Of a stretch of 33,656 nt of DNA, positions 1 to 27,072 are shown piece by piece. The notes beneath the pieces were generated by a model, which made no database searches, had not been told where the DNA came from, and saw only the letters and a program-made list of their open reading frames with translations. Origin of the DNA: Anaerolineales bacterium (GTDB lineage Bacteria > Chloroflexota > Anaerolineae > Anaerolineales > Villigracilaceae); the NCBI GenBank assembly GCA_013360875.1, contig JABWAU010000029.1:1-33656 (forward strand), in the 5' to 3' direction. How positions within the stretch are numbered: position 1 is the stretch's first letter; every line of letters starts with the position of its first letter. Both the position numbers and the translations under genes were made by a program.

Positions 1-426
1 GAGGACTTGCAGGATTTCATAAGGGTCCTTTCCCGCCATATTCATCACGCCGACGAAGCCGGTTTTGTGCGAACCGGAACCGTATGCCCCGTCCACGCCT
101 TTGTAATCCCAGCCGTGACACTCCTTGCAACGCCAGGTATCCCCCCCGGTACGCGTGTTTGTGGTTTGGGTCGCCCACAAGGGATGGTCGCCTTCTGGAA
201 CATCCACACCCAATTCCACTGTCCACTCGTCATACAACCTGCCGCCACGCGCAACATCGCCTTCGAGCATCGGGGGCATGGCTGTGGGAGGAATATCAGT
301 CGCCTCCGCCGGCGCTTCCGTTGCCGCGGGGTCTGCCGGCGGAGGCGTAACAGCCTGACCGCACGCAGCAAAGAGGACCAGCGCCACACCGGATAACCCG
401 ACAAGTAAAGCAATTCTTCCGTTCAT
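1..426 (-). CDS. c-type cytochrome lipoprotein, 3' end cut by window edge
   Basis: The visible 142 residues start at an ATG (426) preceded by a GAGGAG ribosome site about 8 bases away. Residues 1-22 form a lipoprotein signal with lipobox LFAAC, so Cys22 would be lipidated. A proline/alanine/threonine-rich linker follows to about residue 50. One haem-binding motif CKECH (Cys100, Cys103, His104) is visible, followed by GWDYKG and GAYGSGSHKTG. This is a membrane-anchored extracytoplasmic monohaem (or larger) cytochrome c; the axial Met and any further haem sites lie outside the window. The neighbour on the same strand is a blue-copper lipoprotein, so both may serve one electron-transfer chain. 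That link is inferred from adjacency only. The redox partner cannot be named. Confidence 0.85.
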   Translation of the reverse strand, partial: MNGRIALLVGLSGVALVLFAACGQAVTPPPADPAATEAPAEATDIPPTAMPPMLEGDVARGGRLYDEWTVELGVDVPEGDHPLWATQTTNTRTGGDTWRCKECHGWDYKGVDGAYGSGSHKTGFVGVMNMAGKDPYEILQVL

Positions 427-803
427 AAAACAATCTCCTCGCTGCCAAATACTGATAAAGTTATGAATTTTTCCGATTGGGAAAATGTGGTGTGGGGCTG
501 CGTCCTCCTTTCCTGATATGGCTGTAAACCCGCGTATAGTGATGTTTCAGCGACAGGCTGATCGGGAAGAACGGGCGCGTATTGTTACATTGCCCCTTAA
601 CGCACATAAAAGCACGGAGGTCTCACTCATCGTCCTTCTCCTGTCCAGCCAATATCAGACAATATTAGTCCGATTTGTAGTAATATACACATGATCCACC
701 CGCCCGTCGATAGCCCGCCATTCACAAGGGGAATTAAAAAAGGGCTATATTTCGGTTATGTTTTTGGAAAAAGTGTTAACCCTTGAATTCCGCCCGTTAT
801 TGT
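427..803. other. intergenic region without a recognisable gene
   Basis: This stretch separates two minus-strand lipoprotein genes. A 69-codon plus-strand reading frame (485-694) has no ribosome site and no recognisable protein features. The bases next to 426 hold the ribosome site of the cytochrome gene. I see no tRNA, clear promoter or repeat here. Confidence 0.6.
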
Positions 804-3704: not shown

Positions 3705-4459
3705 ACGTTAACCGTTTTCAGATCATCGCTTCTTCGTCTCATCCGCATTATCGCGATTTGGTACGCGGTCTGACCAAAGCCGCGTGGCCCGAATTCATGC
3801 TGCACGACGCCGTTGCCAACGAGAACTGGCACGAACTGTTGGACAGTTTTGCAGACTATCAACTGGCAATGTACGACGTGGAAAATAACCGCGCCGCGGC
3901 GATGGCAAACGGTTTCCCGTTGAGGTGGGATGATACGCTCGAAAACCTCCCCGATGGCGGTTGGGACTGGGCGTTCGCGGAAGCGGTAAGGAACCACAAA
4001 CAGGGAATATCCCCAAACTATCATTGCGCGATCCAGGTCGTCATTCATCCCGATTATCAAAGCCAGCGGTTGAGCGCGCCGATGGTTAAAGCGGTGCGCG
4101 GCCTCGCCAAATCCAAAGGATTGAACGCTCTGATCATCCCTGTCCGCCCGAGTGAGAAAAGCAAATACCCGCTCATCAGTCTGGACGATTACGTCACGTG
4201 GCAGAACGAAGAGGGACTCCCTTTCGACGCCTGGCTCAGAGTCCATGTCAGACTGGGAGGCAGGATGGTCAAAGTATGTCACCAGTCAAAGACCGTGCGC
4301 GGCAGGCGCGCGGAATGGGAGGCATGGACCGGCTTGAAATTCCCCCAAAGCGGACGCTACGTCATTCCCGATGCGCTGGTTCCAATCGAGATGGACGTCG
4401 AAAAGGACGAGGGGATTTACGTCGAGCCGAATGTGTGGATGGTGCATTTTCCTGCCTGA
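3701..4459 (+). CDS. GNAT-like acyltransferase domain protein
   Basis: This 252-residue protein appears to be a soluble GNAT-type acyl-CoA-dependent transferase. The start at 3701 follows GGGAAAGG and overlaps the previous frame by ATGA. The best motif is about residues 110-135 (IQVVIHPDYQSQRLSAPMVKA): a strand followed by the turn and helix that bind the acyl-CoA pyrophosphate in GNATs. The turn QSQRLSAP is a relaxed version of the usual Q/RxxGxG/A. The C-terminal half contains conserved-looking segments (WQNEEGLPFDAWLRVHVRLG). The acyl donor and acceptor are unknown. An older in-frame start at 3497 would overlap the upstream frame heavily and is rejected. Confidence 0.7.
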   Translation: MNVNRFQIIASSSHPHYRDLVRGLTKAAWPEFMLHDAVANENWHELLDSFADYQLAMYDVENNRAAAMANGFPLRWDDTLENLPDGGWDWAFAEAVRNHKQGISPNYHCAIQVVIHPDYQSQRLSAPMVKAVRGLAKSKGLNALIIPVRPSEKSKYPLISLDDYVTWQNEEGLPFDAWLRVHVRLGGRMVKVCHQSKTVRGRRAEWEAWTGLKFPQSGRYVIPDALVPIEMDVEKDEGIYVEPNVWMVHFPA

Positions 4460-4461
4460 TT

Positions 4462-4467
4462 TATAAT
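4462..4467 (+). promoter_or_regulatory. TATAAT -10 element placed for leaderless transcription
   Basis: A perfect TATAAT lies seven bases before the ATG at 4475, with no ribosome site between. Initiation at the usual distance would start the mRNA at or within a base of the A of ATG. Confidence 0.55.
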
Positions 4468-4474
4468 TGAATCC

Positions 4475-5677
4475 ATGAAACCCGCTTATTGGCTGGTTAT
4501 TGCCGTTGCGTTCCTCCTCTTCGCCTGCCAGCCGACCACACTCCCTGCCATTACCATCATTGATAACGATCAGGTCGTCACGCTTCAAACGGCCGAACGC
4601 GTGCCTTCCGCGATCCTCGCGCAAGCGGGTATTACCCTTAACCCGAATGACCGCCTCCTCCTCAACGGACTCCCCATTGCGCCTAATTCTCCAGTCCCTA
4701 CTTCCCCAATTACCCTCCAACTCCGCCGCGCAGTCGCCATCACCATCTCCTCACCACAGGGGAAGCAAACCATCCAAACCTCTGCGTTCACTGTTGGCGA
4801 AGCGTTGCAAGAGGCGGGCATTCAACTCTCAGCAAGCGACAAAGTTGACCCGCCCCTGTATTCCCCAATTCTTCAATTCACCGATTTTCCAATCACCATA
4901 TACCCCTCCCGCGAACTCACTGTCAGCGTGGATGGAAAGGTCATGCAGATTCAATCGTCGGCGAAGACGGTTGGGGAGGCGCTGGCTGAGGCTGGGATTC
5001 CGCTCCTCGGGCTCGACTACAGCCTCCCGTTGGAGAATGAAGCGTTGCCGTCCGATGGGCGGATCAGGGTCGTGCGCGTCAGCGAGTCGATTCTCCTCGC
5101 GCAAAAATCCATTGTCTTCGAAAGCGAATTGATCGCCTCGGCGGACGTCCCGCTCGATCAAACGCGGGTATTACAACCCGGTGAAAACGGGCTCACCGTG
5201 CAGCGAATCCGCATTCGTTATGAAGATGGGACGGAGATTTCACGCGTGATCGAAGACGAAACACTCGTGCGCCCGCCGAAAGATCGCATCCTCGGTTACG
5301 GCACAAAGGTCGAGATCAAGACCGCCGTCGTGGACGGCGTGAGCATCGAATACTGGCGCGCAGTGCAGATGTATGCCACGTCGTATTCGCCGTGCCGTTC
5401 GGGCGGCGACCGGTGCTACTCCGGCACATCCAGCGGCGCCAGGGTGCAAAAGGGCGTGGTGGGACTGCGCTACAGTTGGTACCTGGTCATGCAGGGACAA
5501 CCGCTTTACATCCCCGGTTACGGGTACGCCACCGTGGCGGACGTGTGCGGCGGCTGTGTGGGCAGGCCCTGGATAGACCTCGGTTACAGCGACGAGGATT
5601 GGGAACAATGGAGTTCGTGGGTCACGGTTTATTTTCTGACGCCCGTTCCGCAGAACATCGTATACGTTTTGGAATGA
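4475..5677 (+). CDS. G5/ubiquitin-like (DUF348) and 3D-type cell-wall lipoprotein
   Basis: This 400-residue lipoprotein has a signal ending in LLFAC (Cys18). Residues ~28-200 contain tandem DUF348-like ubiquitin-fold units, each with a VGEALxEAGI signature (seen twice). A G5-like domain follows, about 205-285 (VLQPGENGLTVQRIRIRYEDG, then a linker with EI and GYGTKVE). The C-terminal ~110 residues resemble the 3D double-psi beta-barrel: MYATSYSPC, YIPGYGYATVADVCGG and IDLGYSDEDW keep two of the aspartates that name that domain. The order matches Rpf/YabE-type wall proteins. The family is linked to peptidoglycan remodelling; lytic activity here is inferred. Four cysteines flank the 3D core and may form disulfides. 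Confidence 0.8.
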   Translation: MKPAYWLVIAVAFLLFACQPTTLPAITIIDNDQVVTLQTAERVPSAILAQAGITLNPNDRLLLNGLPIAPNSPVPTSPITLQLRRAVAITISSPQGKQTIQTSAFTVGEALQEAGIQLSASDKVDPPLYSPILQFTDFPITIYPSRELTVSVDGKVMQIQSSAKTVGEALAEAGIPLLGLDYSLPLENEALPSDGRIRVVRVSESILLAQKSIVFESELIASADVPLDQTRVLQPGENGLTVQRIRIRYEDGTEISRVIEDETLVRPPKDRILGYGTKVEIKTAVVDGVSIEYWRAVQMYATSYSPCRSGGDRCYSGTSSGARVQKGVVGLRYSWYLVMQGQPLYIPGYGYATVADVCGGCVGRPWIDLGYSDEDWEQWSSWVTVYFLTPVPQNIVYVLE

Positions 5678-23616: not shown

Positions 23617-24987
23617 ATGAACCTTTCCACATCGCAGATCACGGACACAAAATTCAGGAAGATCGCCAAAAAGATCGTTTCCGAAATGAAGCGGCTCGAC
23701 GTGCCGGGCATCGCCATCGGCATCTGGCACAGGGGCAGGGAACATACGGCGGGGTTTGGCATCACAAGCGTGGAGCATCCGCTTCCCGTCACACCCAATA
23801 CGCTTTTCCAGACCGGTTCGATCAGCAAGACCTTCACCGGCACCGTTTTGATGATGCTCGTCGAGCAGGGCAAAGTGGAGCTGGACGCGCCCGTCCGAAA
23901 GTACATCAAGGATTTCAGGGTGCAGGATGAAAAGGTGTCGAAAAAGGTCACGGTCAGGCATTTGCTTACACATACCGGCGGATGGGTCGGCGACTACTTC
24001 AATAACTTCGGGGATGGCGACGATTCGCTCGCAAAGGCGGTGGAAGATCTAGCCAAATTACCGCAGATACAACCCTTGGGGACGATCTGGTCGTATAACA
24101 ACACGGGGTTCAACGCCGCTTCACGGATCATCGAGATCGTGGCGAAGAAACCCTACGAAAAGGCAGTACAGGAAATGATCTTCGACCCGTTGGGGCTTGA
24201 CATGTCCTTCTTTTATCCCAGCGACATCCTGTTCACACATCGCTTCGTGGTCGGGCATCAGAAGGTGAAGGGAAAAGTTCAGGTGGCGCGTCCGTGGGCG
24301 ATTGGCAGGGCAGGCAACGGCGTGGGAGGAGTCGTGTCCACTGTCCGCGATCTGTTGAAGTATGCGCGCTTCCATACGAGCAATGGAAAGAAGAACGTCA
24401 TCTCTGGAAAAAGCCTGCGGGCGATGCGCGTCCCACAGGCGGATGCCGGTCCGCGCGGGATGATGGGGATCACGTGGTTCATTCGGGATGCAGGCAGGTT
24501 CAAAGTGTACGCGCACGGCGGCGCGACCAACGGGCAGCAGGCGTATTTCTTTTTCATCCCCGACAAGGATTTCGCCTGCGCCATCCTGACGAACAGCGAC
24601 GACGGCGGGATTATTACGGCTGAAATGTTCGGGTTGGTTCTCGAAACATATTTCAAGGTCATTCTGGCATTGCCCGAACCCATCGAGATCCCGACGGTGG
24701 AACTCAAAGAGTACACGGGACGTTACAGGATCGGTACCGAGTGTTTCGACATTAAGGTCAAGGATAAATACCTGATGTATCATCACATCCCGCTGGGAGG
24801 TTTTCCCACACCTGATTCGCCTCCGGGTCCCGCCATGCCGCCGATGCGGTTTCAGTTCTATGCAAAGGACAAGGTCATCGGTTTGGACGAACCGTATAAA
24901 GGCGCGTTGGGCGATATCCTTCGTGATGAAAAAGGGCGCGTGGAATATTTTCGGGTCGGAGGGCGTGCGCACAAAAGGATTTCGTAA
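23617..24987 (+). CDS. class C beta-lactamase family serine hydrolase
   Basis: This 456-residue protein has the penicillin-binding/beta-lactamase class C fold. The catalytic SxxK is Ser68-Ile-Ser-Lys71 (TGSISKTFTG), the YxN motif is Tyr160-Asn-Asn162 (WSYNNTGFNAASR), and the third motif is HGG in VYAHGGATNGQQAYF. The domain ends near residue 350 and a ~100-residue C-terminal beta domain follows, as in many esterase/D-aminopeptidase relatives. There is no signal peptide, so it is probably a cytoplasmic esterase or peptidase and not a resistance enzyme. Start supported by GGAGG. Single-gene unit. Confidence 0.9.
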   Translation: MNLSTSQITDTKFRKIAKKIVSEMKRLDVPGIAIGIWHRGREHTAGFGITSVEHPLPVTPNTLFQTGSISKTFTGTVLMMLVEQGKVELDAPVRKYIKDFRVQDEKVSKKVTVRHLLTHTGGWVGDYFNNFGDGDDSLAKAVEDLAKLPQIQPLGTIWSYNNTGFNAASRIIEIVAKKPYEKAVQEMIFDPLGLDMSFFYPSDILFTHRFVVGHQKVKGKVQVARPWAIGRAGNGVGGVVSTVRDLLKYARFHTSNGKKNVISGKSLRAMRVPQADAGPRGMMGITWFIRDAGRFKVYAHGGATNGQQAYFFFIPDKDFACAILTNSDDGGIITAEMFGLVLETYFKVILALPEPIEIPTVELKEYTGRYRIGTECFDIKVKDKYLMYHHIPLGGFPTPDSPPGPAMPPMRFQFYAKDKVIGLDEPYKGALGDILRDEKGRVEYFRVGGRAHKRIS

Positions 24988-24992
24988 TCCTC

Positions 24993-25021
24993 TTGTATCC
25001 AGCAAACGAATCGGCTATAAT
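24993..25021 (+). promoter_or_regulatory. promoter with perfect TATAAT ahead of a 250-base leader
   Basis: TTGTAT (24993-24998), 17 bases, then TATAAT (25016-25021). Transcription would start near 25028, some 250 bases before the LVIVD gene. Confidence 0.7.
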
Positions 25022-25027
25022 AAGATA

Positions 25028-25171
25028 AATCCAGTCTGAATTATAACGACATCGAACAGGCACACCTATCGCGTGATGGGAATGCATGGTCACGTGGATC
25101 AGTCGGGCTGATGTATATAACGGAAAGATCCACGTTAGACTGCCGAGGAATTTTTCTTCGGTAGTTTTTTT
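25028..25171 (+). ncRNA. structured leader RNA ending in an intrinsic terminator (riboswitch- or attenuator-like), class unknown
   Basis: Between the promoter and the gene lie several hairpins: CCTATC-GCGT-GATGGG near 25070, a 9-bp perfect stem ACGTGGATC (25092-25100)/GATCCACGT (25127-25135), and a terminator CTGCCGAGG/CTTCGGTAG (25140-25164) with seven T. CAGTC at 25100-25104 (also at 25032-25036) can pair with GACTG at 25138-25142, which would block the terminator's left arm. That gives a plausible antiterminator. I could not match it to a known riboswitch class. It might also be an independent small RNA. Confidence 0.5.
25140..25171 (+). terminator. intrinsic terminator inside the leader
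   Basis: A nine-pair stem with two G-T pairs, loop AATTTTT and a run of seven T, located 104 bases before the start codon of the downstream gene. Confidence 0.75.
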
Positions 25172-25217
25172 CCTATTGAAAGGAGGTGGTTCTCGGATCG
25201 TTGAGAAGAATTACCCT

Positions 25218-25265
25218 ATGACCAAGCATCGTATCGAATCCGGCCGTCTAACTTTAGTTTTATAA
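25218..25265 (+). CDS. possible 15-codon leader peptide
   Basis: A tiny frame, MTKHRIESGRLTLVL, ends ten bases before the ATG of the LVIVD gene. Upstream, GAAAGGAGGTG (25178-25188) is an 11-base match to the anti-Shine-Dalgarno end of 16S rRNA, but it stands too far (29 bases) from this ATG. It is nearer (14 bases) to a TTG at 25201, whose 6-codon frame overlaps this one by ATGA. Translation of either is unproven. Confidence 0.25.
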   Translation: MTKHRIESGRLTLVL

Positions 25266-25275
25266 GGAGAATATC

Positions 25276-27072
25276 ATGGACAAGAAGATGAAAGTGTTCG
25301 TAAGAGCCGCAAGGACCGTTTTTCTGGCTCTCGCAATCGCGCTTGCCCCCATCTCATTCGCCCAGGCGAATGAGAACCATGGAGATGATATTCAGGTCCA
25401 TTTCACTGACGAATTCCTGGCGCTGACGGATAGCACATTTACCCAGGGACAAGACGGAGATCATCGCCCTCCACGTTCCCGTAACGTCTCTGTCGTCAGC
25501 CACCTCAGTTTTGGCGAATCCATGTCGAACACCACCAACACGGACGTTTGGGCGCACGGGAAGTTCGCCTACGTCGGCACCTTTTCCAGTCCGGCTTGCG
25601 CCGGTGACCTGGGATTGGGTGTCAAAATCGTTGACATCTCGAATCCCGCCAATCCGCAATGGATCGGTGATCTTGCTTCTCCAGTGGCGACTCGAGCCAA
25701 CGATGTCAAGGTGACGCGCATTGATACCGCCTTTTTCCACGGCGATCTATTGGTGCATACCAACGAACCCTGCCGCACGGGCGGCGATGGCGGCATCCGC
25801 CTCTATGACGTATCCGACCCATACAACCCGGCTCATCTGGCTGATTTCTATTCGATTGGCAGTCCGGGACCGGGGCCGGGGCCGATAGCCTTTGGAGTCC
25901 ATAACACCTACCTCTATCAACTTGGCAATCGCGCGTACGTGATGCTGGTTGCAAACATTGATCCCAATCTCTACGATTTTCGCATCGTGGACGTAACCGA
26001 CCCCTCCGCACCAACCGAAGCGGGACGTTGGAGCGCCACTGTCAGTCCGGATGCGCCGGCGGGTCTCGAACCTCGTGGCACTTCCCGCAGTCTGGGCATT
26101 CACGATGTATGGGCGAACGACAACGGCAAGATGGGAATACTCTCCTACTGGGATTCGGGCTATATCCTGCTGGACATCAGCGACCCGACCAACCCGCGCT
26201 TCCTGGGCAATTCCACGTGGGGACCGGATGACGAGGGCAACGCTCATGCCGCCGTCCCCGCGCGCGGCGGGAATCTCATCGTTACCACCGATGAAGATTT
26301 CTCCGCCACGGGTTTGGGCCGCGTCACTGTGAACGCAGGTCCACATGCCGGGGAGATTTACGAGGCAGTGGTGGGTGCCATCAGTCCATCCTTCTCCCCG
26401 CTTACAGCCGATGTAGCCTGGGTTGGCAAGGGCGATCCCGAGACAGACACCATTGACGACGCCCGCTACGGCTGTCCGGGCGGAAAACCCTATGGCGAAT
26501 CGGTTACCGGGAAGATCGCGTTGATCCAACGCGGCTTCTGCGCGTTCTCCGACAAGATCAACCGCGCCACGGCTGAAGGGGCGGTCGGTGTGATCATGTT
26601 CAATAACGTCGGCGAGGCGCTGGTGCTGATGGGCGGCACACCGGTGACCACCCCCTCCGTTTTCGTCGCGCAGAGTCGCGGCGAGCGTCTGGCAGCGGAT
26701 CGGGAGGCGAATCAACCCGTCAACGTGACGATGCGAATGGGAGAATTCGATGGCTGGGGCTTCGCCCGAATCTTCGACACCTCGAACCCGTCCAACATAC
26801 AGTTGCTTAGCACGATCAAATTGCCTTCCACCAATGATCCGAGCGCGCCCAATCCCTTCGGAGTGCATAACGTCTTCGTGCGCGGCAATACCGCCTACTT
26901 CTCATGGTACGCGGACGGATTCGTAGCCGTGGATTTCAGCCAGCCCAAGTCGCCGCGCGTCATCGCCGAATACAACGACAACAACAACTTCTGGGGCATT
27001 TACGTGCAAGGCGATCTGATCTTCGCCAGTGACCGCAACAACGGGCTGTGGATCTTCAAATTCAAACCATAG
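25276..27072 (+). CDS. secreted LVIVD-repeat protein with inserted PA domain
   Basis: This 598-residue exported protein has a signal peptide ending near AQANE (residue ~34). LVIVD-type beta-propeller repeats recur: VKIVDISNPANPQWIGDL, IRLYDVSDPYNPAHLADFY, FRIVDVTDPSAPTEAGRW, YILLDISDPTNPRFLGN, then ARIFDTSNPSNIQLL and FVAVDFSQPKSPRVIAEY. Between repeats four and five (about residues 355-485) sits a PA domain (GKIALIQRGFCAFSDKINRATAEGAVGVIMFNN). PA domains usually bind protein or peptide partners. The ligand is unknown; a cell-surface or extracellular binding protein is likely. GGAG precedes the ATG. Expression probably depends on the structured leader upstream. Confidence 0.88.
   Translation: MDKKMKVFVRAARTVFLALAIALAPISFAQANENHGDDIQVHFTDEFLALTDSTFTQGQDGDHRPPRSRNVSVVSHLSFGESMSNTTNTDVWAHGKFAYVGTFSSPACAGDLGLGVKIVDISNPANPQWIGDLASPVATRANDVKVTRIDTAFFHGDLLVHTNEPCRTGGDGGIRLYDVSDPYNPAHLADFYSIGSPGPGPGPIAFGVHNTYLYQLGNRAYVMLVANIDPNLYDFRIVDVTDPSAPTEAGRWSATVSPDAPAGLEPRGTSRSLGIHDVWANDNGKMGILSYWDSGYILLDISDPTNPRFLGNSTWGPDDEGNAHAAVPARGGNLIVTTDEDFSATGLGRVTVNAGPHAGEIYEAVVGAISPSFSPLTADVAWVGKGDPETDTIDDARYGCPGGKPYGESVTGKIALIQRGFCAFSDKINRATAEGAVGVIMFNNVGEALVLMGGTPVTTPSVFVAQSRGERLAADREANQPVNVTMRMGEFDGWGFARIFDTSNPSNIQLLSTIKLPSTNDPSAPNPFGVHNVFVRGNTAYFSWYADGFVAVDFSQPKSPRVIAEYNDNNNFWGIYVQGDLIFASDRNNGLWIFKFKP

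What the first reader, a model, noticed from the sequence alone, without database searches (positions are those of the whole stretch)
24993..25275. Strong promoter plus 250-base structured leader with internal terminator before an LVIVD/PA-domain gene
A 17-base-spaced promoter with perfect TATAAT feeds a leader containing a 9-bp stem, a seven-T intrinsic terminator, and a CAGTC/GACTG pairing that would disrupt the terminator. After it comes an 11-base perfect anti-SD match with no properly spaced gene, and a 15-codon frame just ahead of the gene. This looks like a riboswitch, attenuator or leader-peptide control not matching any class I know.
Basis: partly seen in the sequence, partly recalled or inferred. 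Interest (0 to 1): 0.6.

Follow-up and report, generated by a model that had tools for sequence, protein, structure and literature searches.

The report
Diverged c-di-GMP riboswitch, orphan ribosome site
The stretch before this secreted-protein gene is a relative of a known RNA switch for the signal c-di-GMP whose sensor core has changed, followed by a strong ribosome-binding site with no gene of its own that is also seen before other exported-protein genes in related bacteria.

Summary
The features described are all in the sequence. Rfam finds no riboswitch, but a model of 19 same-genus c-di-GMP-I aptamers, built without the window, hits 25049-25147 at 33.6 bits (E 2e-8; next best in the window 12). 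Relatives share the architecture: promoter, aptamer, terminator, orphan SD, exported-protein gene. One has an intact aptamer at the same site.

The window's aptamer keeps P2, P3 and G20, A47 and C92. It has lost A48, A49, the last base of the P2 tetraloop, the P3 internal loop and the C44-G83 contact, and differs at 14 of 37 near-invariant columns. c-di-GMP control is probably lost or altered; a new ligand is possible but unproven.

The orphan SD is a separate module: 66 of 80 leaders have it (1.2 expected), about 86 nt before the start codon, with start codons depleted just after it. The same spacing occurs without riboswitches: 1161 pattern matches against 341 reversed controls in 150 class genomes, and 33 of 41 genes checked look exported. 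It resembles the stabilising STAB-SD of Bacillus thuringiensis cry3A. The 15-codon frame and the CAGTC pairing are not conserved.

The parts
24993..25021 (+). promoter: TTGTAT, 17 nt, TATAAT
   Evidence: read directly; TATAAT also stands before the leaders of G002 and G008 and G014
25049..25147 (+). diverged c-di-GMP-I-type aptamer
   Evidence: model R1, 33.6 bits, E 2.3e-8
25052..25054 (+). P1 5' strand UCG, can pair with CGA 25144-25146 (not in the predicted minimum-energy fold)
   Evidence: R1 alignment; fold
25059..25061 (+). GGC: equivalents of G20, G21, C22 (retained)
   Evidence: alignment mapped on Vc2 numbering (residue list; mapping mine)
25065..25080 (+). P2: CCUAUC, loop GCGU (relatives end in A), GAUGGG
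25081..25088 (+). J2/3 core AAUGCAUG where the family has GACGCAAA: A47 kept; G42, C44, A48, A49 changed
25089..25140 (+). P3: GUC 25089-25091 with GAC 25138-25140, then perfect 9 bp 25092-25100/25127-25135; the family's internal loop is gone
25137..25171 (+). intrinsic terminator with T run; its 5' arm overlaps P3 base, J3/1 and P1 3' strand
   Evidence: -17.5 kcal/mol
25178..25188 (+). orphan Shine-Dalgarno GAAAGGAGGTG; 95 nt from AGGAGG to the ATG; no start codon 3-11 nt after it
25218..25265 (+).
25265..25269 (+). ribosome-binding site (AGGAG) of the gene
   Evidence: read directly
25276..27072 (+). 598-aa LVIVD-repeat / PA-domain protein with signal-like N terminus
   Evidence: Pfam PF08309, PF02225; L240 row

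Best explanation
The region is a two-module 5' leader. Module 1 descends from a c-di-GMP-I (GEMM) riboswitch with a terminator platform. In relatives the terminator's 5' arm is the aptamer's own 3' strand, so a ligand-stabilised aptamer should block termination (inferred ON switch). In the window P2 and P3 survive and P1 can still pair, but seven near-invariant unpaired bases, the P3 internal loop and the C44-G83 contact are changed. So most likely c-di-GMP no longer controls it well and the terminator acts as a constitutive attenuator behind its promoter. Module 2 is an orphan strong SD just after the terminator. It most likely docks 30S subunits without initiating translation and protects the downstream mRNA, as STAB-SD does. 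Shown: homology, architecture, base changes, and the conservation, spacing and start-codon depletion of the orphan SD. Inferred: switch direction, loss of response, ribosome docking, mRNA stabilisation.
For: R1, built without the window, hits 25049-25147 at 33.6 bits, E 2.3e-8, next best 12 bits. The G002 leader after the same beta-lactamase-like gene carries an aptamer at 57.3 bits for RF03167 (gathering 59) and 58.4 for RF01051 (gathering 35). In the family structure 17 of 24 pairs change on both sides, 0 of 500 shuffles as high (alignment fitted to that structure). The window differs at 14 of 37 columns conserved in at least 95% of 83 other aptamers; the next worst differs at 7, median 0. 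Orphan AGGAGG in 66 of 80 leaders, 1.2 expected, median 86 nt to the start. Start codons 3-11 nt after it: 8 of 594 positions against 109 of 2375 further on. The SD outlives the aptamer: two G008 leaders keep a terminator-like hairpin and the SD, a G006 leader only the SD (by eye), with no R1 match there. STAB-SD precedent: PMC4113751 and PMC3997798, passages.
Against: P2 and P3 stay paired despite the core changes, and G20, A47 and C92 are kept, which plain decay would not favour. Some c-di-GMP-I aptamers naturally lack a tetraloop receptor (PMC11218506 passage), so losing the P3 internal loop is not by itself disabling. A dead ON switch before an intact terminator would starve the gene. No RNA data exist. 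Orphan-SD statistics use related leaders, so p-values are only indicative; 14 of 80 leaders lack AGGAGG, six of them with GGAGG. A weaker excess over control also appears at the shifted spacing (434 against 289). The spacer shows no structure (mean z 0.07), so the preferred spacing is unexplained.
Confidence: 0.66

Rival explanations
1. The aptamer is a functional variant with altered ligand specificity: stems are kept while the pocket and packing changed, as when GEMM-I aptamers gave rise to c-AMP-GMP sensors.
For: P2 and P3 are in the predicted fold, P1 can pair, and the P2 changes keep pairing; G20, A47 and C92 are kept while A48, A49, C44 and the loop changed. GEMM variants with another ligand are known (PMC7266159, passages).
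Against: The variant core pattern occurs only in this genome of 396 searched, apart from four two-mismatch matches (those four were not examined further). One sequence gives no conservation of the new core. Neighbouring loci show plain loss of the aptamer.
Confidence: 0.17
2. It is still an ordinary c-di-GMP riboswitch that tolerates the changes.
For: G20, A47 and C92, the contacts named in PMC4744006 (passage), are kept, and the G14-C93 pair atop P1 can form. Receptor-less c-di-GMP-I aptamers exist (PMC11218506 passage).
Against: A48 (key in PMC3764141) and the interhelical pair (universal in PMC4744006; equated with C44-G83 by me) are lost. No Rfam riboswitch match up to E 10, and none in the window among the five RF01051 matches of this genome at E 1.
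Confidence: 0.14
3. The orphan SD is a relic or serves a leader peptide, not a docking site.
For: Eight of 66 leaders have a start codon 3-11 nt after it; the window has a TTG 14 nt after it and a 15-codon frame.
Against: Start codons are depleted, not enriched; no conserved frame; in the seven leaders where the tract lies more than 100 nt behind the aptamer it is still 77-108 nt from the gene.
Confidence: 0.15
4. Chance promoter, hairpins and purine tract in an intergenic spacer.
For: The terminator and 9-bp repeat alone are not rare in shuffles.
Against: Independent model hit and syntenic homologues.
Confidence: 0.02

Closest known systems
c-di-GMP-I-GGC (RF03167) and c-di-GMP-I / GEMM-I (RF01051) riboswitches
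   Same: P1/P2/P3 layout, G20, A47, C92, overlap with a terminator, exported-protein gene as in relatives
   Different: last base of the P2 tetraloop, P3 internal loop, C44-G83 contact, A48 and A49 lost; no Rfam riboswitch match
STAB-SD of Bacillus thuringiensis cry3A
   Same: GAAAGGAGG-type SD in the 5' UTR not followed by a start codon (cry3A sequence recalled; role from passages)
   Different: other phylum (Chloroflexota, inferred); about 86 nt before the gene's own start; here after a terminator; seen before many exported-protein genes; stabilising effect untested here
Bc1 c-di-GMP-I riboswitch of B. thuringiensis (PMC11218506, abstract and passages)
   Same: c-di-GMP-I aptamer, terminators and a long platform before the gene
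   Different: GAAA loop with receptor and two terminators; no orphan SD named in the passages seen

Membership tests
c-di-GMP-I riboswitch | Rfam match above gathering score | tested here: not met
   only a tRNA in the window at gathering score; no riboswitch among four matches up to E 10 in 24900-25400
c-di-GMP-I riboswitch | homology to family members | tested here: met
   33.6 bits, E 2.3e-8 with a genus model lacking the window
c-di-GMP-I riboswitch | P1, P2, P3 helices | tested here: met
   P2 and P3 in the predicted fold; the three P1 pairs are possible but not in that fold
c-di-GMP-I riboswitch | ligand contacts G20, A47, C92 | tested here: met
   25059, 25086, 25143 by alignment (mapping mine)
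c-di-GMP-I riboswitch | A48 and A49 | tested here: not met
   U 25087, G 25088; A in 83 and 82 of 83 others
c-di-GMP-I riboswitch | GNRA or GYRA loop on P2 (receptor only in type I) | tested here: not met
   loop GCGU; the last base is A in 82 of 83 others; types from PMC11218506
c-di-GMP-I riboswitch | interhelical C44-G83 pair | tested here: not met
   C44 is U 25083; no bulged G in P3
c-di-GMP-I riboswitch | binds c-di-GMP | not testable with these tools
   needs in vitro probing
STAB-SD | strong SD in the 5' UTR | tested here: met
   GAAAGGAGGTG 25178-25188; Anaerolineae anti-SD CCUCCUUU per PMC10783764 table passage; this genome's 16S end was not read
STAB-SD | does not direct initiation | tested here: inconclusive
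   no start codon 3-11 nt after it; depletion across leaders; no ribosome data
STAB-SD | stabilises the mRNA | not testable with these tools
   needs half-life measurements
leader-peptide attenuator | conserved short reading frame | tested here: not met
   10 of 66 leaders, 17.5 expected

The most novel reading that the evidence does not exclude
Anaerolineae mark mRNAs of exported proteins and lipoproteins with a non-initiating, strong Shine-Dalgarno sequence about 70-110 nt upstream of the true start. It docks 30S subunits to protect or prime the mRNA. Riboswitches, here for c-di-GMP, are interchangeable modules placed upstream of it, and the window shows one whose sensor is being lost or retuned while the docking site stays.
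Probability: 0.4. Interest if true: 0.7.

Novelty: new variant of a known kind. Interest (0 to 1): 0.5.

Why it matters
It shows a sensor module changing while promoter, terminator and orphan SD persist, with an intact homologue at the same site for comparison. If the orphan SD works as inferred, a bacterial class uses ribosome docking away from any start codon in the expression of its exported proteins, which RNA-seq and ribosome profiling of an Anaerolineae isolate could test directly. It also links c-di-GMP to secreted proteases in this group.

Tried and rejected
DNA search of the leader in 298 class genomes gave, outside the own genome, only short matches (best E 0.004). The LVIVD protein has no relative by tblastn in genome contigs and only partial, weak matches in 60 relatives, so synteny with the upstream beta-lactamase-like gene was used. 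Of 13 named loci with that gene, R1 finds a strong aptamer only in L237; four further matches at E up to 1 score 11-19 bits. The variant core was sought in 396 class genomes: only the window, plus four two-mismatch matches. Leader-peptide and CAGTC-antiterminator ideas were tested and not supported.

Selection and dropped rows. The 82 leaders are strong model hits taken, not a random sample; two listed hits close to a contig end (G355, G424) and the canonical switch G002C190 were left out, as were the canonical tandem switches. Two of 82 had no usable gene call. One search read minus-strand loci in the wrong orientation; this was put right, and nothing is counted. The 83 other aptamers include two sites fetched twice.

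Papers. Searches about an orphan SD and about the riboswitch in Chloroflexi listed no paper that by title or abstract describes this in Chloroflexota. Searches showed 20 of 31 and 15 of 30 papers; PMC2864571, listed, was not opened; only open-licence PMC papers are held. This is weak evidence of absence.

Full report
Setting. The window is contig C7 of an unnamed 3.99-Mb genome. Ten named contigs that carry the neighbouring beta-lactamase-like gene have the same lengths as contigs of same-genus genomes and are titled Chloroflexi, Anaerolinea, Anaerolineaceae, Anaerolineales or Anaerolineae MAGs, so I place the window in Chloroflexota, Anaerolineae, by inference. The leader lies between that gene (23617-24987) and a 598-aa protein with LVIVD repeats and a PA domain. 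The leader DNA has one place in its genome.

Homologues at the same site. Downstream of the orthologous beta-lactamase-like gene, G002 and G008 carry leaders with TATAAT, a similar start of the aptamer, a terminator-like hairpin and an AAGGAGG tract. In G002 Rfam gives c-di-GMP-I-GGC at 57.3 bits, just under its gathering score of 59, and RF01051 at 58.4 bits, over its 35. In G014 an intact aptamer stands before a PA gene that lies upstream of the same beta-lactamase-like gene. The G002 gene is an M28 peptidase with a PA domain; the only significant match of the window's protein to it is within the PA domain, so the gene behind the leader differs.

The family. Fourteen of 18 same-genus genomes have an RF01051 match over the cut-off. 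In an Rfam scan of seven loci, 11 of 12 matches at gathering score are to RF03167 and one to RF01051. Of eight genes behind such leaders, seven match Pfam: three subtilases, a trypsin-like, an M6 and an M28 peptidase, and a BNR-repeat protein. Model R1 from 19 of these aptamers, window excluded, has matches at E up to 0.1 in 116 of 152 family genomes and hits the window at 25049-25147 with 33.6 bits, E 2.3e-8; the next best window match has 12 bits. In covariation, 17 of 24 pairs change on both sides, none of 500 shuffles as high, and slid controls are far lower; the alignment was fitted to that structure.

What changed in the window. Among 37 columns conserved in at least 95% of 83 other aptamers the window differs at 14, the next worst at 7, the median at 0. 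Mapped by me on Vc2 numbering (residue lists from PMC3764141 and PMC4744006 passages): A18, A24, A35 of the P2 loop, G42, C44, A48 and A49 are changed; G20, C22, A47 and C92 are kept, and G14-C93 can pair. P3 has lost its internal loop and is a perfect 9-bp helix, so no bulged G is left as partner for position 44. P2 and P3 are in the predicted fold; P1 is not, though its three pairs are possible. c-di-GMP-I aptamers without a receptor exist (PMC11218506 passage), so that loss alone proves little; the loss of A48, A49 and the C44 contact weighs more. This is either decay with stems surviving or a variant pocket; the variant core was found in no other of 396 class genomes beyond four two-mismatch matches.

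Switch logic. The terminator's 5' arm (from 25137) is the aptamer's 3' part (P3 base, J3/1, P1 strand), as in relatives. A ligand-bound aptamer should therefore hinder termination; this direction is inferred. With the pocket changed, read-through would depend on terminator strength.

The orphan SD. In 80 of 82 leaders with a usable gene call, 66 have AGGAGG between aptamer and gene, 1.2 expected from dinucleotide shuffles; the median distance to the start codon is 86 nt, middle half 81-95, range 73-141. Of the 14 without it, six carry GGAGG. In the seven leaders where the tract lies more than 100 nt behind the aptamer it is 77-108 nt from the gene, so it belongs to the gene side. Start codons 3-11 nt behind it are rarer (8 of 594 positions) than further on (109 of 2375; p 8e-5, relatedness ignored). 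In the window AGGAGG lies 95 nt before the ATG.

It is not tied to riboswitches. In the own genome a pattern of AAGGAGG, 55-85 nt, GGAG, 4-10 nt, ATG has 35 matches against 12 for the reversed control. With AAGGAGGT and 54-84 nt over 150 class genomes: 1161 against 341, with more matches than control in 129 genomes and fewer in 12. With 134-164 nt: 434 against 289, more in 88 and fewer in 27 (summed); a weaker excess thus remains at the shifted spacing. A stricter form in 60 genomes: 330 against 32. Of 49 loci examined (29 of the own genome, the window among them, and 20 others), 41 gave a gene of 90 aa or more behind the pair; 33 of 41 have a signal-like N terminus by a home-made hydrophobicity rule, against 5 of 19 other genes in the same loci (Fisher p 1e-4). 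The 41 include three riboswitch leaders and some likely chance matches. Many look like substrate-binding lipoproteins by their N termini (my reading). One further case lies in the window itself at 424-512 on the minus strand.

Interpretation. A strong SD without a start codon stabilises mRNA in Bacilli (PMC4113751, PMC3997798, passages). The same role is the best guess here. The locus history fits two modules: two G008 leaders lost the aptamer but kept a terminator-like hairpin and SD, and a G006 leader kept only the SD (by eye; no R1 match there).

Verdict. It is a diverged c-di-GMP-I riboswitch leader plus an orphan SD module. The aptamer is not filed as a working member because tested defining contacts are missing. 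The orphan SD pattern across the class is the more novel part.

Noticed in passing
window 424-512 (-): Another orphan strong SD (GAAAGGAGGAC) 84 nt upstream of a lipoprotein-like gene running off the contig end.
   Followed up: partly
G000:C150 (L139) and G006:C121 (L140): Clusters of three c-di-GMP-I-GGC riboswitches, each before a gene with a signal-like start; in L140 a subtilase, a BNR-repeat protein and a trypsin-like protein.
   Followed up: partly
L115/L132, L109/L125 and similar: Tandem pairs of canonical c-di-GMP-I aptamers about 160-170 nt apart in at least 10 of 18 same-genus genomes; not counted among the leaders here.
   Followed up: no
L148 (G008:C601), about 4400-4730: A second leader before another exported-looking gene with TATAAT, a terminator-like hairpin and AAAGGAGGTG but no aptamer match.
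   Followed up: partly
listing: Many orphan SDs continue as AAGGAGGTGAT, which would lengthen pairing with the usual 16S 3' end; not counted or compared with ordinary RBSs.
   Followed up: no
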